Below are positions 421 to 32,953 of a stretch of 32,953 bases of DNA, piece after piece. The position numbers and the translations under genes are program-made. Origin of the DNA: Allomyces arbusculus (Eukaryota > Blastocladiomycota > Blastocladiomycetes > Blastocladiales > Blastocladiaceae). Every line of letters starts with the position of its first letter. The stretch's first letter is position 1. The DNA lies in assembly GCA_027604705.1 (NCBI GenBank), contig JADHYV010000127.1:1-32953 (forward strand), in the 5' to 3' direction. The notes under the pieces are model-generated. The model had not been told where the DNA came from, did not search any database, and saw nothing but the letters and a program-made list of their open reading frames with translations.

Positions 421-2116
421 CTACTGCTCACCCTCTGAGCTCACATCCTCGTCGCTCCCTTCACTCTCCGCGACCGCAGGCTTGCGCACCACCGGGACCG
501 CCGGCGCGACCTTTCTCGCGCCCGTCGCCGCCGCCGCCGCCGCCGTCTTCGGGAAAAACCGGTCCCACGCACCCGGGCTCAACTCGAGCGAGACGTCGTC
601 CGGGTGGTACGACTCGGTGAGCAAACGGTACATGTAGGACGGCGCGTAAACACCCTCGTTGGTGATAAACAACGCCACGAGTTCCGGCGCAACGTAATCA
701 AAGTAGGGGTTCAGCACTTCAGCACCCGCGGCAAGCGTATCCCCGGCCTCGTCAGCGACCGTCGCGGGCGCACCGAGCAAGTTGAATACGTCGAGGTCGA
801 ACGGGTGCAGCGGGGTCAGCTTGTAGAGACCCGCCGTCACGACGACGGGGATCGCGTAGTGTTTCGCGGCCACGGCGAGGGTCGTTGCGCCAGAGAGAGC
901 GACGAGGCCGCCGTTGGCAAGGATCGAGTGCGTGCCGAGCACGACCTTGTTGACGCGCGACATGACGGCAAAGACGGCCGAGTCAGGGATCACGGTGGTC
1001 TCAATCCCGGCAGCGGCCAACTTGCGCGCGAGCTGGTGGCCCGAGTAGACGGGCGCGGATTCGACGACGATCACGTGAAATTGCCGCTTCTTGGCCGCAT
1101 GCTTGAAGAAGTTGAGCGTCGTGGTTGCGTCGCCGCACGTGAGGATGATTTCGCTACCAGGAAGTCAAGCGTCAGTTCCGAATGTGCACGATACAGGCCG
1201 TCGTCGACAAGAAGAAACAAAATACGCACTTGGAATGAATGTGCGCGACCGACTGGGCGGCAATCGAATCATGGAGATTGCGCATCTCATCGAGCATCTC
1301 ATTGATCGCCTCGACAAACATGCTCTTGGTTGTCGTCGACTTGATGCGGCCATAGTCGATTCGGACCGCGTCGGTCTCGGCAAACAGACTGAACACCGAC
1401 GTGTGCGGCGCGAGCTGGTGATGGTGCAAATGCGACCCGTGCGGCGACGTTGGCGGCGCCGAACTCGCCGCACTGGGCGACCCCGCGACTGACAGGTTGC
1501 CGAGCCCAGCGGCCAACGCGTTCACGTCAGCGCCCGTACCCGTCATGGCGGCACCGGTGGCAATCGGTGCCAGCGTGAGCGACGCAAGCGCCGGCGACTT
1601 CTTGGCCGACGCCGGGCGACTGCCCGCGGCCGACGCGGGCTTGCTCAGACCCTTGCCCGTGGCCGTTGCCACAGTCGAGGCAACGCTCTTACTGCGGGCA
1701 AGCTGCTGCTCGCGTTGTTCGCGCTGCTCCTCCATAACAATGGCATGACACTCTTCGCGAATGACGCTGAGCAGGCGGCGCACGATATTGCCCGTGCACA
1801 GTTCCATGGGCTGCGCCTCCTGGCACCGTTTGCCGACGAGCTTGATCAGGTCCATGAGGTTGTCAACGTTACCCCACTTGCCCGACGAGACGACCATGCG
1901 CAGGATGTCGAGCATTTTCTCGGAGACGGCGTGCGATCCGTAGATTTGGCTAGAATGGGCAGCAGCAGGGCAAGCGTCGGTCGGATCAGAGTCATAAGCA
2001 AGCGCGACGAGCCAGCAGGGCAGATGAGCGTACCGGCGACGCAGCTGGGCAATAAACGTTTCGATTGCGACTTGCACGCGCGCACTGACGTGCGGGATCT
2101 TGACGGTGCCGGCCAT
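421..2116 (-). CDS. GCD7: Translation initiation factor eIF2B subunit beta
   Basis: Regulatory subunit of the eIF2B guanine nucleotide exchange factor, which recycles eIF2-GDP for Met-tRNAi delivery in the cytosol. Three exons in transcript order: 2116-2034, 1949-1230, 1153-421, giving 511 aa. Introns of 84 and 76 nt start GTACGC and GTGCGT. The splices join RRR to QIYGSHAVSEK and HIHS to NEIILTCGD, as the family requires. The C-terminal Rossmann-like half is typical, with AGIETTVIPDSAVFAVMSRV, VVLGTHSILANGG, and FDYVAPELVALFI followed by APSYMYRLL. Family members are about 350 aa. The extra length is a Ser/Ala/Pro-rich insert between the helical N-terminal domain and the catalytic-fold half, plus an acidic, Ala-rich C-terminal tail. 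The start at 2116 is the first ATG ahead of the conserved helix. The next gene on this strand, RhoGDI, ends 636 bp upstream. Confidence 0.93.
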
Positions 2117-2751
2117 GGTTGCGAGTTGGTGATCGGGTCGGGTGCACTGGAGTGGGCGCTGGAAAGAAGGTGCAGGGCGATCACGGCCGTTAAGCAGCTT
2201 GCTGGTCGGTGCGGAACCACGGGCGCGCTCGCAACAATAAATTGCGGGCAGTTGTATGTCGGGGAGACTAGAGCTGTTGGTGCTGTTGCCTGCCGAGCGC
2301 GGGTGGTTGCTCGTAGGCGTGGTGTGCGTGTCCGTTTGTTCACGAACCAGCGCAGCCAAGTCCGAAGCAACGCTGGTCACTCGCTTGACTCACCTACCGC
2401 TCGCCCTGGCTGTGCGCGACCAACACTACCAGAGCAATCAACATGGTGACATTGGGCAGCCGAGGAAACAACCGCCGCCCGCGCCGTGCCAGCATGCATG
2501 TCCAGGAGCCATGATCCCGCACGCGCGCGAGAAGCAGGCGAAACACGCGCGCGTCTGGGTGCGAGCGGCGGGCGGGGAGCAAACAACAGGAGGAAAACCA
2601 AACGAAAGGCGAAAAAGAACGAAACAAAGCGGGGTTGGAGAGCTCACAAAAAGCGGGGACGTATCCGGACGCCGCGAGCGAGTGCGCGCCGGGAATACTT
2701 CCAGAGAGAAAACACGAAAACCGAACTGCAGGTGGAGGGAGCGCGAGTTCC
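2117..2751. other. Intergenic: eIF2B beta promoter and RhoGDI 3' flank
   Basis: This 635-nt gap lies between two minus-strand genes. It should hold the RhoGDI 3' end and the eIF2B beta promoter and leader. Open frames cross it but none shows family similarity. I see no clear TATA box or RNA gene. Confidence 0.5.
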
Positions 2752-4830: not shown

Positions 4831-6703
4831 ATGGGTGTGCTGCTGTCGACTGGCATGTCCGCCGGCCTCTCCATCGCATCGTTCATGGCGACGCAGGCCG
4901 CCTGCTGCTGCACGTCTGGTAGGCCTTTGCTCCAGTTCTCGCTGCAATCGACCCACGTTGCTCTGACGCGACACCAACAATAATTTGTCCAGCTGCGTGC
5001 CGCTGCGTCAGCGCCCTGTCGTGCAATTCCTCGACGGCGACGCGCGCTGCCTATGCCGCGCTCTTCCTCGTCAACTCCATTGCCGCATGGACCATGGAGT
5101 CGGATGCGGTCGGTAAGCTGCTCGCACGCGCGTCGCAAGGCTACCTCAAGCTCGACTGTCCAGATTGTTACGGCGTGCTCGCCGTACAACGAGTGTGTTT
5201 TGCCCTCGCACTATTCCACGTCGCTATGGCTGCGCTGCTCGCCGGTGTGCGCACCTCGCGCGACCGACGCGCCGGGTTCCAAAATGGGTTCTGGGGGCCC
5301 AAGTTGACATTGTGGCTCCTGCTCGTGGTTGCCGGTACCGCACCGACGGTGCACTCTGCACTTGGCACATGTAGATCCACCCACCCACTGACGCGCCAGG
5401 ACATCGCATCTCTAGCCTTCTTCATTCCAAACGAGTTTTTCATGGCCTACTCCAAGTCGGTAGCCCTGCTCGGCGCCGGCGTCTTTGTACTGCTTCAGTT
5501 GCTGCTGCTCATTGTGCGTTTTTCCGCCCGTGCCCTTTTTGCGAATCGATTCACCAACGACCCCGACCAACGTCTAGGACTTTGCGCACACGTTTGCCGA
5601 GGGCCTGATTGCCCAGTACGAAGAGGCCGACGGCAAGGGGCCCATGATCGTGCTCGTCGGCGGCACCGTGACGCTGCTCTTAGTCGCTGTCGTCCTGACG
5701 GGCGCACTCTACGGCTACTTTGCTGCCTCGTCGTGCCACCTCAACCAGTTCTTTATCTCGTTCAACCTCGTGCTGTGCCTGATCATTTGCCTGCTCTCGA
5801 TTGCGCCAGCCGTGCAAGAACACAACCCGCGGTCCGGGCTCGCGCAAGTTTCGATGGTCGCGGCGTATGCGACCTACCTCGTCACGTCGGCCGTGGCCAA
5901 CGAGCCCGCCGAATTGAACCCGGACGGGTCGCCCGATACGACGTGCAACCCGTTGGCCGCGGCCAATACGTCGCAGACGGTCACGGTTGTACTCGGTGCG
6001 CTCTTCACGTTCATTGCCGTGATCTACTCGACGTCGACGGCCGCAGTCAAGGGCCGCAGATTCCTCGGGGATGACGACGAGTACGACGACGATTCTAACA
6101 TGCCGTTGCTCGCCGCGCGCGATATCGACGAGGAGGGTGGTGTTGCGGCGGCCGTGTCGTCGGAAATGGCCGCACTGCAGGCGGCTGTGGAAAGCGGTGC
6201 CCTGCCCGAGTCGGCGCTGGCCAACGCCAAGCTCGCACGATCGGCCAGTGGGACCGCCGTGACGGCGCAACCCGGTGCAGGTCAAGCGCCACCACAGCCG
6301 ACGGTCGTGGTCGTGCATGCCGGACCCACAGACCAGTACCCGACCGAAGATGAGGCTAAGGGCGTCGCCTACAGCTACTCGTTCTTCCACGTCGTGTTTG
6401 CGCTCGCGGCCATGTACGTGGCCATGCTGATCACGAACTGGAACACAGTCTCGGTCGTACCAGGCGCGCATGACGATGATTCGGGTTTACTCGCGCAGGT
6501 GGGCAAATCGTGGGCGGCCGTGTGGGTCAAGATTGTCTCGAGCTGGCTCGCAATTCTCTTGTACGCGTGGACGCTGCTGGTACGCACAATTGTCGTTTTT
6601 TTTTGGCGCACCTGGCCGTTGTCGATGCTGCAGTTTCTAATCCATTGCGCCTCTCATTGTTCTTTAGGCGCCGATCGTGCTCCCGGACCGGGAATGGCAC
6701 TGA
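4831..6703 (+). CDS. TMS1: Serine incorporator family membrane protein (Serinc/TMS1)
   Basis: Multi-pass membrane protein of the Serinc/TDE1 family. The family is linked to serine-derived lipid supply and membrane lipid distribution, and yeast Tms1 is vacuolar. Five exons: 4831-4918, 4993-5334, 5416-5513, 5578-6579, 6668-6703, giving 521 aa. Introns are 74, 81, 64 and 88 nt. Diagnostic segments are the N-terminal Cys cluster, SSTATRAAYAALFLVN, RVCFALALFHVAMAALL, GFWGPKLTLWLLLV spliced to AAFFIPNEFF, LLLLI spliced to DFAHTFAEG, CHLNQFFISFNLVLCLIICL and VAYSYSFFHVVFALAAMYVA. The end, WTLL spliced to APIVLPDREWH, mirrors the animal Serinc tail. An acidic and Ala-rich cytosolic loop before the VAYSYSFFH segment is longer than in animals. 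Start codon choice follows the conserved N-terminus. Confidence 0.94.
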
Positions 6704-16883: not shown

Positions 16884-18455
16884 ATGCTTGCTGTGCGCAC
16901 GCTCGCCGCGTCCCGCATCGCGGCCCACGCTCTGCGTGCCACCCCCGCCGCCTGGATGGCGTACGTTTCCAGAGCGCACTTACGACTGTCATTGGCCTTC
17001 TTCGTGCGCCGAAGCTGACCGCATCGTGCCTGCCACCCTGTAGCCGCGGGTACGCATCGTACCCGAGCCACACGGTCATCAACATGCCCGCGCTCTCGCC
17101 GACCATGACGCAGGGCAACATTGGCGCGTGGAAGAAGCAGATTGGCGACACGATCGTGCCCGGCGACGTGCTCGTCGAGATTGAGACCGACAAGGCGCAA
17201 ATGGAGTTTGAGTGCCAGGAGGAGGGTATTCTCGCCAAGATCCTGCTCGAGCAGGGCGCCAAGGATGTGCCCGTTGGGTCGCCGATCGCCGTCATGTGCG
17301 AGGAGGCTTCTGATGTCGCGCAGTTCAAGGACTTTGCACCGTCCGCTGCTGCCGCGGCACCCAAGGCTGCTGAGGCCGCGCCCGCTGCTGCTCCCGCCGC
17401 TGCTCCTGCTGCTGCTCCCGCGCCGGCAGCTGCTCCGGCAGCTGCCCCCGCTGCCGCTGCTCCCGCTGGTACTATTCCTCGTCTTGATTTTCACGATACG
17501 TGGGCACCGACCTGATCAACGTTGTCTGACAGGCCGCGTGTTTGCCTCGCCCCTTGCCCGCACGCTCGCTGCGCAAAACAACCTGCCTCTGAACGCGATT
17601 CAAGGCACAGGCCCGAACTCGCGCGTGATTGCCGCCGACGTGCAGCGCACGCTCGCGCAGCCCGCTGCCCCGGTCGCTGCCGCTGCCGCGCCCGCGGCGC
17701 CCGTCGGTGCCCCGCAGGCGTCGACGGTCGTGTCGGAGACGGAGACGCCCTTCGAGGACGTGCCGCTGACCAACATGCGCAAGGTGATTGCGCAGCGTCT
17801 CGGTGAGTCGAAGGCCACGATCCCGCACTACTACCTGACCGCGACCGTCACCATGGACCGCGCGCTCAAGCTGCGTGAGGTGCTCAACGCCAAGCTTGCG
17901 GCCGCGGGTCAGGGCAAGCTGTCGGTCAACGACCTAGTTGTCAAGGCCTCGGCGCTTGCTCTCAGCGACGTGCCCGCCGTGAACGCGGCGTGGTGGCCCG
18001 CAACGGGCTCGGTGCGCCAGTTCAAGCGCGCTGATATTGCCGTGGCTGTCGCCACCGACGCGGGCCTGATCACGCCGATCGTGCGTGGTGCTGACACCAA
18101 GGGGCTCAAGTCGATTTCGGCGGCCGTGCGCGACCTGGCCGGGAAGGCCAAGGCCAACAAGCTTGCGCCGCACGAGTACCAGGGCGGGTCGTTCACGATT
18201 TCGAACCTGGGCATGTACGGGTCGGTGGAGCACTTCACGGCCATCATCAACCCGCCGCAGGCCGCGATTCTCGCGATTGGCGGCATGGACGAGAAGATTG
18301 TGCGTGTGCCGGGCAAGGACAATGAGTTTGCGGCGTCGCAGGTGATGAAGGTGACGCTCTCGTGCGACCACCGCGTCGTTGATGGCGCCGTCTCGGCGCA
18401 GTGGCTCGCCGCGTTCAAGAAGTACCTCGAGGAGCCGCTCAACATGCTGCTGTGA
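16884..18455 (+). CDS. LAT1: Dihydrolipoamide acetyltransferase, PDH complex E2
   Basis: Core of the mitochondrial pyruvate dehydrogenase complex. It transfers acetyl from lipoyl-Lys to CoA. Three exons: 16884-16960, 17044-17468, 17533-18455, giving 474 aa. Introns are 83 and 64 nt (GTACGT, GTACTA). The N-terminal 28 residues are Arg/Ala-rich without acids, a mitochondrial presequence, probably cleaved just before GYASYPSH. One lipoyl domain follows, with MPALSPTM and lipoylated Lys about 77 in EIETDKAQM. Then come an Ala/Pro linker, a peripheral subunit-binding domain ([30 protein letters not shown]), and the acetyltransferase domain ending in [13 protein letters not shown] with its HxxxDG active site. 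The second intron falls at the border of the Ala/Pro linker and the subunit-binding domain. Domain order and size match fungal E2. Confidence 0.96.
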
Positions 18456-24714: not shown

Positions 24715-26514
24715 ATGAAGCCCTCCGCCTCGACCGACCGTGCCGCGCAGTACAAGAACCGCGGCGCCTTCCGCCCCGAGGAGCTGCGCCGCCGCCGCGA
24801 CGACCAGGTCGTGTCGCTGCGCCGCAAACAGCGTGATGAGAACCTCGCCAAGCGCCGCAACCTCAACTTTGACAATGACGAGAGCGACCTCGACGACGAG
24901 GACGACGCCGCCGGCCTCAACGAGCCGGTATGTTTCGTGCGAGAGCTGCCACGCTCGTATCGCTCGCTCGACTTGCCTGCACGCGTGCGCGAACCGTGTC
25001 CTCATCTTCTGCGCGTGTCATCCGTCTTTCAATCACAGATTGCCGAGCAGCTGCAGTCGCTCACCGCTGCCGTCTTCTCGGACAATGCCGAGAAGCAGAC
25101 CGAGGCCACGACGCACTTCCGCCGTTTGCTGTCGCGCGGTACGCTGTGGTGATGCTTTTTCGCGGCCGCCGTTAGCCAACACCCCGACTCTGACCTCGGG
25201 ACGCGCCCTGTCAATCCAACGTTCTTAGAGCGCAACCCGCCGATTGCCGAGACGATCGCGTGCGGCGTCGTGCCGCGCTTTGTCGAGTTCCTGCGCAACG
25301 CATCGGCGCCGCTGCTGCAATTCGAGGCCGCGTGGGCGCTGACCAACATTGCGAGCGGCTCGTCGGAGCAGACGCAGGAGGTGATCAACCACGGCGCGAT
25401 CCCGATTTTCATTGAGCTGCTGTCTTCGCCCGTCTCGGACGTGCGCGAGCAGTGCGTGTGGGCGCTCGGCAACATTGCCGGCGACAGCCCGGACCTGCGC
25501 AACCTCGTCCTCGCGCAGGGCATCCTGCCGCCGCTACTCGGTCTGCTCAACGAGAACATCACTAAGATTACGCTGCTGCGCAACGCGACGTGGTGCCTGT
25601 CGAACCTGTGCCGCGGCAAGAACCCGTCGCCCGACTGGGAGGCCATCAAGCCGGCGCTGCCTACGCTCGCCAAGCTGCTCTACTCGTCCGATGAGGAGGT
25701 GCTCACCGACGCGACCTGGGCCATCTCGTACCTGTCGGACGGGTCGAACATCAAGATTCAGGCCGTGATCGACACGGGCGTGTGCCGCCGCCTCGTCGAC
25801 CTTCTCTCGCACCCGTCGACGTCGGTGCAGACGCCGGCGCTGCGCGCGGTCGGCAACATTGTCACGGGCGACGACTACCAGACGCAGGTCATGCTCAACT
25901 GCAACGTGTTGCAGGCGCTCAATCTGCTGCTCTACTCGCAGCGCGAGGCGCTGCGCAAGGAGGCGTGCTGGACGATCTCGAACATCACGGCCGGAACCGC
26001 GCAGCAGGTGCAGACGGTGATCGACGCCAACTTGATCCCGCCGCTCGTGCACATTCTCGGCACGGGCGACTTCAAGACCAAGAAGGAAGCGTGCTGGGCC
26101 ATCTCTAACGCCACGTCGAACGGGCTCGATAACCCAGCGCAGATTCAGTACCTCGTCGCGCACGGCGTCATCAAGCCGCTCTGCGACCTGCTTGCGTGCA
26201 TGGACAATAAGATCATTCACGTCGCGCTCGACGCGCTCGAGAACATTCTCAAGGTCGGCGCCATGATCGCGCAGGGTGATGCCAACGCCAATGCGTTTGC
26301 GCTCGCCGTCGAGGAGTGCGGCGGCACCGACAAGCTCTACGCCCTGCAGGACCACGAGAACACGGAGATCTACACCAAGTCCTACCGCATGATCGAGACC
26401 TACTTTGACCATGACGACGAGGACGCTGACGCGCCCGCCGCGCAGGTCGACTCGACGGGCCAGTTCACGTTCAACTCTGACATGTCGGGACCGCAGACGT
26501 TCCACTTTGGCTAA
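24715..26514 (+). CDS. SRP1: Importin subunit alpha (karyopherin alpha)
   Basis: Adaptor that binds classical nuclear localisation signals and links them to importin beta for nuclear import. Three exons: 24715-24927, 25039-25138, 25229-26514, giving 532 aa, the normal length. Introns are 111 nt (GTATGT) and 90 nt (GTACGC). The N-terminal importin-beta-binding domain (residues 1 to about 70) has [20 protein letters not shown] and [15 protein letters not shown]. Armadillo repeats follow, with the NLS-pocket Trp/Asn ladder: [52 protein letters not shown] and [11 protein letters not shown]. The splices join LNEP to [14 protein letters not shown] and LLSR to [19 protein letters not shown], both family-typical. 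The acidic C-terminus (DHDDEDAD) is also normal. The gene is convergent with the F-box gene. Confidence 0.97.
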
Positions 26515-29617: not shown

Positions 29618-30030
29618 GATTCAATGGGATCCTCCCATCATATTGTCAAGCTTGATTGAACACCAACATTTTAAGTGTGATGATTGTGGCCACCACCAGC
29701 TGTCAGCAAGAAGAAAAAACAGCTGCACAAAACAGTAGAATCTGTACAAGACAATAGGACTGTGGAACAAACACAAATTAAACATGCTTGGCCAAACCAA
29801 ATGACACACAATCAGCACAGCCATGCAGCAGGTGGCCAAGTGCATACAATTCAGCCACACCATGCAACCAATCCTTCATGACCACATGCTCCTTGACATC
29901 TCAGCTGTATCTTTGAATCTTTTTGTTGATCTTGTACCCAGCCATGGAGAATGCACACTCAGCATTTGCAATAGTGTGCTCAGAGTGAATGTACTCTTGC
30001 ACCAGCTAAAAGGTTAAGAGGCCTGCCCAG
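29618..30030 (-). mobile_element. Decayed hAT-like DNA transposon fragment, CpG-free
   Basis: On the minus strand between about 30005 and 29848 one frame reads LVQEYIHSEHTIANAECAFS, then MAGYKINKKIQRYS, a TGA, then DVKEHVVMKDWL. The arrangement T-x-A-x-x-E-x-x-F-S-x-A-G followed about 20 residues later by V-x-x-K-x-W-L is that of the C-terminal dimerisation region of hAT transposases. The TGA sits where an Arg codon CGA would fit, so it may be a CpG transition. The whole block 29618-30030 (413 nt) contains not one CG dinucleotide. N-terminal parts and terminal repeats were not found, so the element is a fragment. Confidence 0.55.
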
Positions 30031-30300
30031 CGTCGGTTTTTACTTTTTATTGTATCAATCGATAGCTCTCCTCAAGGACTATTCATGGTGTGGAAAGGTT
30101 TTTGCGCGCGTTCAAAATGGCCAAGTAATAGCCGGTAAACGGGTTTTACGTGTTGAAAGTGCCCCGTGTCAAATAATTCATATGACTACACGAGTACCAC
30201 CACTCGATAGAGATCCTCGAGACAAGGCGATCCGTGCAAACTAGAGGTGTAGGTGACTGAAAATAAAAATGTGGTGAGCTTAAAACGGGTTTGTGTGTCA
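30031..30300. other. AT-richer block with retained CpGs
   Basis: About 270 nt with no gene, lower GC than the chromosome arm, yet with many CpGs, unlike the blocks on either side. The 10-mer AAACGGGTTT occurs twice in direct orientation (30137-30146 and 30283-30292), and the first copy lies in a near-palindrome GTAAACGGGTTTTAC. It may be a younger insertion. Confidence 0.4.
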
Positions 30301-30312
30301 TTGTTGAGTGGC

Positions 30313-30657
30313 ATTCTGTTTTCCCCACTCGCCGTTCCGCTTTTCCCACTCGTCATGCGACCACCACATCACCTCCTCCACCGCACATTCCCCTTTTCCC
30401 ACTCGCCGTTCCGTTTTCCCCACTCGTCACGTGACCACCACATCACCCCTGCACCACACATTCCCCTTTTCCCACTCGCCGTTCCGTTTTCCCCACTCGT
30501 CACGCCACCACCACATCACCCCTCCACTGCACATTCCCCTTTTCCCCACTCGTCATGCCACCACCACATCACCTCTCCACTGCACTTTCCCTTTTCCCAC
30601 TTGCTGTTCCATTTTCCCCACTTGTCATGCAACCACCACATCACCCCCTCCACCAGC
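30313..30657. repeat. Subtelomeric tandem repeat, unit about 73 nt
   Basis: About five head-to-tail copies of a pyrimidine-rich unit. Landmarks in order are CCCACTCGCCGTTCCG, TTTTCCCCACTCGTCA, GACCACCACATCACC and CACATTCCCCTTTTCC. Unit starts are near 30313, 30388, 30463, 30543 and 30594. The fourth copy lacks the first landmark. The last copy is full length but has TG or CA wherever the others have CG. Confidence 0.85.
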
Positions 30658-32452
30658 ACTGCCATCACCACCACCATGACCAACAACCACTGCCTGCACC
30701 TTCATCAGCACATCAACTGCAACCACAACTGCCATGAACAACCACCACCACCACGCTGCAAATAGCTCCAACATGCTGCAATAACATGGATATGACGCCT
30801 GCCATCCAGCACACATGTTGCTCTGCCTGCAGCTGCTGATTTCCAGTCAACCGCATCACCACCACTCTCCATGACACCTGATGCCACACCTGGCTAAACA
30901 GCAATCTATTGCTGGTTTTATTCTCGTGCGTGTGCTGCCATCATTGCACCACTCGCTCCTGATCCATGTTTGCGCTGCACAGCCGTCCCTCTCCTCACAT
31001 GCACTGCCATTGTAGTGCCTGGAAGTCGCGTTTCCAACAGCCTTGCGCTGCCCACAACAGGCCTGCAACCACCCCATGCCTGGCTGCACCCATGTGCGAA
31101 CTCTTCCAGGACTGAGCAATGGTTGCCGCATGTTACCTGGGCCCATACGTGTGGAATGTAGCAGCACACGGCGTCTGGGCGGCGCAGATTGGCATAAGAC
31201 ACGTTTGTCAATGATGCAGCTGCTGCAACTGCTGCAACTGGCCAGTGCGTCTGTCAGTGCTGCCGCCCGCTTTGACATTGTGGATTTGTGCGCTCTAGGG
31301 CCTGACACCCATGTGGCGTGAGCAAGTCAATGTACGTTCTTGCCTGTGATATCGGCGACAACATGTGATGGGTCCAACTCAGCTGATTGAGCCTGCTCTT
31401 TTCTAAGGAGCAGTCCCATGACAACCACTATTGAGCCAACACACAGCGTCTGAGGTGTGCCACCACCAGCGTGACCATGCCACCATGTCTGCCATCACCT
31501 GTCTGTCACTAATGCATGCATGCTCCTCGCCAGCCACGAGACTGATCAGATGTGGTCCACACCTCAGTAGCATGACTCAAGACCCTTGCCCTTGTGTGCC
31601 CTGCCTGCTGTCCTCATGTGCTGGTGCCGCCCCCTTTCTACATTGAAGTGGTTGGTTGTTGCAGGAACACGCAGTCACAGTGTGGGTCCCATGATGTGCA
31701 CTTGATTGGTTGTGTCCCTGTGTTTGCTGCATCTGTGCTTGTCATGATTGCTGAGCTGTTCATGCGTGCGGTTGTGGCAGCCTCCCCTTGTGCAGTCATG
31801 ACGTCCCCCTCCCCCCCCCCCCCTGTGCTGCTCACCTGTGTTGTTGCCCCACATGCACAGTGCCGTGTTTATCTGGTGATGATGTGCATGGCTGCTGATG
31901 CTGATATTCGCGCCAATGGGAGCTGGGCCCATTTTGGGACTTGTCACCCAACATGCACCTGCTGGTCGTGACGCTCACCAATGTTATGGAAATACAAAGG
32001 TACATTGTACTTTGTGCATTCCACAATGGCCAATGCTCATGCTGTGTGACTCTAGACTGATCTGCGACAACGTTTCGTTTTTTGGATGTAGACTGGCCTG
32101 GCTCTGTCTTGTCCACATGCTGTCCCTCCTGCCATCCTTGGCGTCTGCACTGCATGAGCATGCTGCGCTGTGGTCATGTGGGCTGGGACTGGCCGTTGTG
32201 TGCTCTGGGATGATGATGCCATTGCACACACGGCCCGTTTTTTGACGTTCGCATGTGCTCAACATGCACAACTTCATCAAGGTTCAGCTGATCGCGACCC
32301 TGTCGTCACCATGTGCTCAAGATGGCGTGCAGCACTGCACGCAACATGTCATGGTGCATGAGATGGGCCACCACTGGCCGCATATGGCGCGGGCAATGGT
32401 CTTGGACCATGGCACTCAGTGCAGGTTCGTGTTTTTCATGTTTGATTACTGG
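30658..32452. other. Gene-free, CpG-poor subtelomere
   Basis: About 1.8 kb without a recognisable gene on either strand. Open frames are short and Cys/His/Met-rich, as expected from TG/CA-rich noncoding DNA. Counting by eye gives roughly 55 CpGs in this stretch, about 2 per 60 nt, against 8-11 per 60 nt in the importin alpha exons. A C13 run lies at 31811-31823. It may be a decayed subtelomeric repeat shared with other chromosome ends. Confidence 0.6.
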
Positions 32453-32953
32453 TTTAGGTTAGGTTTTAGGTTAGGTTAGGTTTAGGTTTTTTAGGTTAGG
32501 TTTTAGGTTTTAGGTTAGGTTTTAGGTTAGGTTTTTTAATTAGGTTTTTTTAGGTTTAGGTTAGGTTTAGGTTTTTAGGTTTTTTAGGTTTTTAGGTTAG
32601 GTTAGGTTTTAGGTTTTAGGTTTTAGGTTTTAGGTTTTAGGTTAGGTTTTAGGTTTTTAGGTTTTAGGTTTTTTTAGGTTTAGGTTTTTAGGTTTAGGTT
32701 TTAGGTTTTAGGTTTTTAGGTTTTTAGGTTTAGGTTTTTTAGGTTTTAGGTTTTTAGGTTTTAGGTTAGGTTAGGTTTTAGGTTAGGTTTAGGTTTTAGG
32801 TTTTTAGGTTAGGTTTAGGTTAGGTTTTAGGTTTTAGGTTTAGGTTTTTAGTTAGGTTTTTAGGTTTTAGGTTTTAGGTTTTAGGTTTTAGGTTTTAGGT
32901 TAGGTTTTTAGGTTTTAGGTTTTTAGGTTTTTAGGTTAGGTTAGGTTTAGGTT
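32453..32953 (+). repeat. Telomere, irregular T(2-7)AGG repeats
   Basis: The last 501 nt consist of AGG separated by 2 to 7 T, mostly TTAGG, TTTAGG, TTTTAGG and TTTTTAGG in no fixed order. The G-rich strand runs 5' to 3' toward the right edge, the correct direction for a right chromosome end. Only two interruptions were noticed: TTTTTTAATTAGG near 32532 and TTTTTAGTTAGG near 32846. The sequence reaches the window edge, so the true length is unknown. Confidence 0.92.

What the first reader, a model, noticed from the sequence alone, without database searches (positions are those of the whole stretch)
32453..32953. Telomere built from irregular T(2-7)AGG units with only two G
Seen directly: the AGG core is invariant over about 500 nt while the T run varies from 2 to 7 from unit to unit. 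Most fungi have regular TTAGGG. A unit with two G and a floating number of T implies a telomerase RNA template that allows slippage or variable alignment over its A run, or a different end-maintenance mode. Two G per unit also means weaker G-quadruplexes and probably altered binding by Myb-type telomere proteins. Homopolymer sequencing error could inflate the T variation but would not remove the third G from all units.
Basis: partly seen in the sequence, partly recalled or inferred. Interest (0 to 1): 0.7.

Follow-up and report, generated by a model that had tools for sequence, protein, structure and literature searches.

The report
Telomere with floating T-run, two G
The chromosome ends of this probably flagellated fungus carry TTAGG-like repeats whose T stretch varies from two to about seven, most simply explained by a telomerase whose A-rich template cannot hold a fixed register; it is an unusual variant of an ordinary telomere.

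Summary
Window 32453-32953 is a terminal array of 75 T-runs, 73 followed by AGG. The window is contig C127 of a 25.9 Mb, 197-contig assembly. All 126 copies of TTTTAGGTTTTAGG in it lie in 21 terminal arrays, G-rich strand outward at all 21. Pooled: 951 TnAGG units, n=2:215, 3:141, 4:212, 5:231, 6:99, 7:45, 8:6, 9:2; AGGG is 2 of 1003 tokens. The spectrum does not differ between inner and outer parts of the arrays (P 0.12), and ends share no unit order beyond shuffles, so sequencing error and recombination copying are unlikely. A TERT gene is present. Best reading: telomerase whose template has CCU beside an A-run (about AACCUAAAAA) on which the primer's terminal TT can sit in several registers. 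This template comes from a model that is weakly identifiable, and the telomerase RNA gene was sought and not identified. Two-G units are known (TTAGG in arthropods, TTTTAGG in Klebsormidium); the floating T-run is the new part.

The parts
32453..32953 (+). terminal telomeric array T(2-7)AGG, G-rich strand 5'->3' toward the contig end; 75 T-runs, 73 AGG
32316..32452 (.). subtelomeric block abutting the array, 89.8% identical over 137 bp to a block about 1.1 kb inside the telomeric end of contig C106 (L019)
30012..30155 (.). second subtelomeric block, 92.4% identical over 144 bp to the block that abuts the C106 telomere (L019)

Best explanation
This is a true telomere made by telomerase. Shown: terminal position and polarity at 21 ends, no interstitial copies of the 14-mer tested, presence of a TERT gene. 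Inferred: the telomerase RNA template has CCU beside an A-run, about 5'-AACCUAAAAA-3' (possibly 6 or 7 A, possibly followed by CC). Each cycle copies AGG and then TT up to the 5' boundary. On translocation the terminal TT can pair with any two neighbouring A of the A-run. Pairing next to U gives T2, one step further T3, then T4 and T5; one-base pairing or repeated slipping gives T6 and T7. Because a homopolymer alignment region has no unique register, T number is drawn nearly afresh each cycle, while CCU, read directly, gives a constant AGG.
For: T2 to T5 are of similar order (215, 141, 212, 231) and fall off above 5 (99, 45, 6, 2). A copying model over 163 product strings ranked TTTTTAGGTT (template AACCUAAAAA) first by BIC; some longer strings had a higher raw likelihood. 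In 3-fold cross-validation of 17 strings it was second to its extension AACCUAAAAACCUA (-1891 against -1881); the six templates of form A(k)CCUAA, A(k)CCUAAC or A(k)CCUAACC scored -1996 to -2095. Arrays simulated from AACCUAAAAA have T2 189, T3 157, T4 201, T5 178, T6 104, T7 37, roughly like the real ones. Short units (AG, A or G in place of AGG) are followed by T2 in 20 of 37 cases against 191 of 929 after AGG (Fisher P 1.2e-5). After the 10 G-type units the order is T2 6, T3 3, T4 1, as expected if upstream T pairs with the A-run across one mismatch (a post hoc reading). TERT.
Against: The telomerase RNA gene was not identified. The model is weakly identifiable: arrays simulated from all three other templates tried (A7, GTTAGGTTTTT, AGGTTTTTAGG) were also best fitted by TTTTTAGGTT (one simulation each). 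AAAACCUAACCUAA, of another type, cross-validates at -1929, not far behind. The simulation also makes some T1 and T10-T12 units, which the AGG units of the real arrays lack. The dip at T3 is not explained by equal registers. Neighbouring units show a modest dependence (chi-square P 0.006), with fewer T2-T2 pairs than expected (30 against 40.8). The T2 excess after short units was found after looking, and for the A type alone (3 of 7) it is not significant.
Confidence: 0.55

Rival explanations
1. Telomerase copies one fixed template A-run but stutters (the enzyme slips on A) during elongation, rather than choosing a register at translocation.
For: The T-run tail above 5 needs some slipping; AGGTTTTTAGG (template CCUAAAAACCU) cross-validates at -1914 and its simulation also resembles the data (161, 159, 194, 234, 67, 29 for T2 to T7). 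Stalling, stuttering and misincorporation are named as known causes of heterogeneous repeats (passage in PMC8211666).
Against: Slipping about one length should give one mode; T3 is rarer than both T2 (P 1.0e-4) and T4 (P 1.9e-4). The T2 excess after short units is not expected.
Confidence: 0.24
2. Two telomerase RNAs or two template variants, one giving TTAGG and one giving TTTT(T)AGG, act on the same ends.
For: Modes at T2 and at T4-T5 with a dip at T3. Several AACCTA-rich sites exist outside the arrays. Telomerase RNA paralogs with different templates are known (passage in PMC8211666).
Against: Processive use of either would give blocks of one unit; instead T2-T2 neighbours are fewer than expected (30 against 40.8). 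No RNA gene identified.
Confidence: 0.12
3. T variation is a sequencing or assembly artefact of homopolymers.
For: T runs are homopolymers and the sequencing platform is unknown; odd tokens are 16 in the outermost quartile against 8 and 4 in the two middle ones, 6 of the 16 being contig-end cuts.
Against: The spectrum does not differ between the four quartiles of the arrays (P 0.12). Two-mode spectrum with T2 at 22.6 percent (215 of 951). Long open frames such as importin alpha are intact in the window.
Confidence: 0.05
4. Ends are kept by recombination or a mobile element and the array is a relic.
For: Some subtelomeric blocks are shared between ends.
Against: A TERT gene with catalytic motifs. 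Longest shared unit order between ends is 7, 60 shuffles give 6 to 10. No interstitial copies of the 14-mer.
Confidence: 0.03

Closest known systems
Klebsormidium (streptophyte alga) telomere TTTTAGG
   Same: two G per unit and four T; found in cloned and sequenced telomerase (TRAP) products (passage in PMC9498494; group named in a passage of PMC7046594)
   Different: given there as one unit; here T4 is only 212 of 951 units
Arthropod telomere TTAGG
   Same: AGG core with two T, as in 215 of 951 units here; motif as in the abstract start of PMC8977481 listed
   Different: regular unit; different lineage
Heterogeneous yeast telomeres such as Saccharomyces T(G)2-3(TG)1-6 (passage in PMC10100673) and fission yeast (recalled)
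   Same: irregular product, ascribed to variable alignment or partial copying by telomerase (recalled)
   Different: there the G part varies; here the G part is nearly constant and only T varies
Malassezia telomerase RNA template sliding
   Same: alignment slippage near the template is invoked to explain other repeats (passages in PMC12506658)
   Different: between species, not unit to unit in one genome
Cestrum elegans TTTTTTAGGG and Chlamydomonas TTTTAGGG
   Same: long T stretch (passages)
   Different: three G; given as single units there

Membership tests
telomerase-made telomere | tandem repeats at several chromosome ends, absent elsewhere | tested here: met
   126 of 126 TTTTAGGTTTTAGG in 21 terminal arrays; 207 of 209 AACCTAAAACC too
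telomerase-made telomere | G-rich strand runs 5'->3' toward the end | tested here: met
   11 of 11 left ends on minus, 10 of 10 right ends on plus
telomerase-made telomere | TERT with RNA-binding and reverse-transcriptase domains | tested here: met
   PF12009 above cut-off in three pieces, each reading over one stop that I take for an exon edge; motifs A, B', C, E read by me; RVT_1 E 1.4e-4 on the motif C frame, below its cut-off, and no family on the motif B' frame. A full gene model was not made.
telomerase-made telomere | telomerase RNA with matching template | tested here: inconclusive
   33 non-telomeric sites fetched, none singled out, several not followed up; RF02462 gave nothing in G000 or in the controls
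telomerase-made telomere | telomerase activity / BAL31-sensitive ends | not testable with these tools
   needs material
Klebsormidium-type TTTTAGG | uniform TTTTAGG unit | tested here: not met
   212 of 951 units are T4
arthropod-type TTAGG | uniform TTAGG unit | tested here: not met
   215 of 951 units are T2
canonical fungal TTAGGG | three G per unit | tested here: not met
   2 AGGG of 1003 tokens; TTAGGGTTAGGG at 2 single places

The most novel reading that the evidence does not exclude
A telomerase whose template alignment region is a homopolymer, so that translocation has no fixed register and the genome's telomeres are written in a two-part code: a constant AGG and a T number drawn almost freely each cycle. 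This would be a natural read-out of telomerase translocation, and the order of T numbers would be a record of past extension at each end.
Probability: 0.45. Interest if true: 0.55.

Novelty: new variant of a known kind. Interest (0 to 1): 0.42.

Why it matters
If the register model is right, each unit of each telomere reports one translocation event, so register choice, partial copying and the template boundary can be studied from genome sequence alone. It also offers a two-G, variable-spacing substrate for asking what telomere-binding proteins need. It is a modest advance: two-G units and irregular telomeres are each known.

Tried and rejected
Telomerase RNA search. Twenty-five template-like sites outside the arrays came from three patterns (6 from ACCTAAAACC; 3 from CCTAAAAACC; 16 from AAAACCTAAC) and were fetched as 24 loci, L032-L055. 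All patterns asked for a G within 14 to 25 nt downstream, so sites without one are missed. A codon-bias screen found coding-like frames over 3 of the 25 (L042, L054, L055). I first favoured A7CCTAAC at L033 minus strand, but it lies just past the end of a MAPEG-type gene and would run antisense through it, and that template fits poorly (-2094.5). L036, L041, L045 and L039 were read by eye: L039 lies upstream of a GTPase-like frame; L036 (AAAACCTAACCTA before about 1.4 kb without coding-like frames) stays open, its fold z-score being -0.83. L034, L037, L044, L048 and others were not followed beyond the screens.

After I searched AACCTAAAAA with a G within 12 nt: 31 rows, 8 of the places being sites outside the arrays, fetched as L060-L067. 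Three are covered by coding-like frames (L063, L065, L066). Two (L061, L062) look coding by my reading only. L067 lies just before a possible start codon (my reading). L064 lies beside an antisense 471-aa frame. L060 (AACCTAAAAAAACCT) lies in what I read as a divergent promoter. Fold z-scores single out none: of 168 windows in 24 loci the lowest are L046 -4.3 and L051 -3.2, of 120 windows in 4 loci L062 -3.4; these were not followed up. Rfam scans of 10 of the 32 candidate loci gave nothing above a gathering score. The Ascomycota telomerase RNA model was uninformative.

Shared unit order between ends (copying by recombination): none beyond shuffles. Order among units in the window alone: lag 1 P 0.33; lag 6 P 0.002 among 7 lags, taken as chance. 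Naming the organism: the rRNA search failed and was not repeated.

Full report
Check of the observation. The array occupies 32453-32953 and reaches the last base. It holds 75 T-runs; 73 are followed by AGG, one by AG, one by AA. TTTTAGGTTTTAGG occurs 16 times in the window against a shuffle mean of 0.00.

The same repeat is at other ends. The window is contig C127 of an assembly of 25,903,786 bases in 197 contigs. I fetched 20 further contig ends: 11 left ends and 9 right ends, one contig (C29, 284,793 bp) having both. The 14-mer TTTTAGGTTTTAGG is found 69 times forward and 57 times reverse in the assembly, its reversed control 0 and 1 times, and the same 69 and 57 copies are in the 21 ends, so none is interstitial. 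The 11-mer AACCTAAAACC has 207 of its 209 copies there. Orientation is outward at all 21 ends. Array lengths are 188 to 501 bp, mean 335. TTAGGGTTAGGG has two single places against two for the reversed control. A contig end without these words could have been missed.

Unit statistics. Pooled over 21 ends there are 1003 tokens, 951 of them TnAGG: n=2 215, 3 141, 4 212, 5 231, 6 99, 7 45, 8 6, 9 2. The other 52 are AG 23, A 11, G 10 and eight rarer ones, including AGGG 2. Six of the 52 are the last token of an array and cut by the contig end, and several lie at the inner junction. Ends do not differ significantly in spectrum (chi-square P 0.095). T3 is rarer than T2 (P 1.0e-4) and than T4 (P 1.9e-4). 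The spectrum does not differ significantly between four quartiles from inner to outer (P 0.12), whereas odd tokens are commoner in the inner quartile (24) and the outer (16) than between (8, 4). Neighbouring units are nearly independent: chi-square P 0.006 on 892 pairs, with small effects such as T2-T2 30 against 40.8 and T3-T2 39 against 27.0.

Not an artefact, not copying. A homopolymer error about one true length would not give a spectrum with a dip at 3, nor keep it toward the inner side, where coverage should be best (inference; coverage and reads were not seen). The longest unit order shared by two ends is 7 units; 60 shuffles give 6 to 10. Some subtelomeric blocks are shared: the window's 32316-32452 and 30012-30155 match two places near the C106 end at 90 and 92 percent.

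Telomerase is there. PF12009 (telomerase RNA-binding domain) matches three pieces at C8:21372-21893 above cut-off, each reading over one stop that I take for an exon edge. The frames around them contain, by my reading, motif 1-like HRLVPKITG, motif A VKVDIESAFDSI, motif B' SGIPQGGVLSPML, motif C RFVDDF and motif E WCGLLIDT. Pfam gives the RNA-binding domain on two frames, RVT_1 on the motif C frame at E 1.4e-4 (below its cut-off) and nothing on the motif B' frame. Motif names are recalled; no full gene model was made.

Mechanism. I fitted a simple copying model (advance along a template, or leave it and realign with a weight that grows with pairing) to the 21 arrays, each without its first 25 nt. 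Of 163 product strings, TTTTTAGGTT was best by BIC, though some longer strings had a higher raw likelihood. It means template AACCUAAAAA: the primer ends in TT at the 5' boundary and TT can sit in several registers on the A-run. In 3-fold cross-validation of 17 strings its extension AACCUAAAAACCUA scored -1881, itself -1891, A6 -1902, A7 -1906, A4 -1909, CCUAAAAACCU -1914, AACCUAAAAAAACCU -1919, AAAACCUAAAA -1927, AAAACCUAACCUAA -1929, CCUAAAACCUAA -1953, and the six A(k)CCUAA, A(k)CCUAAC and A(k)CCUAACC forms -1996 to -2095; CCUAAAAA without the 5' AA fails (-3961). A caution: I simulated arrays once from each of four templates, and TTTTTAGGTT came out best for all four, its own and the three others (A7, GTTAGGTTTTT, AGGTTTTTAGG). 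The fit therefore says 'CCU next to an A-run of about five' at most, not the exact ends. The simulation from GTTAGGTTTTT gave T-runs up to 45, unlike the real data; that from AACCUAAAAA gave 189, 157, 201, 178, 104, 37 for T2 to T7 with a few T1 and T10-T12.

One further sign: after a short unit (AG, A or G for AGG) the next run is T2 in 20 of 37 cases against 191 of 929 (P 1.2e-5). The parts are AG 11 of 20, A 3 of 7 (not significant alone) and G 6 of 10; the eight rarer odd tokens, and the last token of arrays not ending in T, were left out. If the spacer is short, T further back can pair with the A-run when TT lies next to U, which favours T2; for the ten G-type units the order 6, 3, 1 for T2, T3, T4 fits. 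This was noticed after the fact.

The telomerase RNA was not identified. Thirty-three template-like sites outside the arrays in 32 loci were screened; none stands out, and several non-coding ones, such as L036, were not followed far enough to exclude them (details under tried and rejected). Without a related genome, covariation could not be used.

Organism. The window's importin alpha has as best match in the Protein Data Bank 4rxh, which I recall as Neurospora crassa. A flagellar protein, PACRG, is present (PF10274, E 1.2e-33). GC of the window is about 52 to 71 percent per kilobase. A flagellated fungus such as a blastocladiomycete would fit, but this is inference from recalled knowledge; PACRG also occurs in other flagellates.

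Comparison with print. Two-G units are known: TTTTAGG in Klebsormidium (passages in PMC9498494, and PMC7046594) and TTAGG in arthropods (abstract start of PMC8977481 in the listing). TelFinder (12 of 19 passages of PMC10100673) calls fungal telomeres divergent and irregular, but the passages seen list no variable-T AGG repeat. TeloBase (three passages of PMC10767889) showed none either; its database was not searched. A search for papers with at least four of TTAGG, TTTAGG, TTTTAGG, TTTTTAGG and telomere as whole words gave 0; one for telomere repeat, TTAGG and Blastocladiomycota gave 0; one for TTTTAGG, TTAGG, fungi and telomere gave 3, of which I saw passages in two and only the listing of PMC7658794. 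One search gave 0 because of a badly chosen term. Subscription papers and preprints are mostly not held, so this is weak evidence of absence.

Verdict. A real and general telomere type in this genome, very probably telomerase-made, with a nearly constant AGG and a floating T number. New variant of a known kind. The register explanation is the likeliest but not proven.

Noticed in passing
L060 2366-2380 (minus strand), L067 near 1483, L039 near 1496, L045 near 1560: Single or double AACCTA-rich elements; L060, L067 and L039 lie in what I read as promoter or 5' leader stretches, L039 upstream of a GTPase-like frame: they resemble telo-boxes. Enrichment was not tested.
   Followed up: partly
G000 contig C29 (L013, L024): A contig of 284,793 bp with telomere repeats at both ends, apparently a whole small chromosome.
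   Followed up: no
window 30320-30653: Subtelomeric tandem repeats of 53 to 125 bp period in a kilobase with GC skew -0.38.
   Followed up: no
21 ends, L012-L031 and window: Short units (AG, A or G for AGG) followed by T2 more often than expected (20 of 37 against 191 of 929); only partly explained by the model.
   Followed up: partly
window 421-2386 (-), 4923-6071 (+), 17109-18452 (+), 25153-26511 (+): Ordinary gene frames about 6 kb and more from the telomere: IF-2B-type subunit (second frame just below cut-off), Serinc, 2-oxoacid dehydrogenase E2, importin alpha. Four of the ten frames scanned had no family.
   Followed up: partly
window, first 150 bases: A run of more than 20 C near the window start, possibly of uncertain length.
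   Followed up: no
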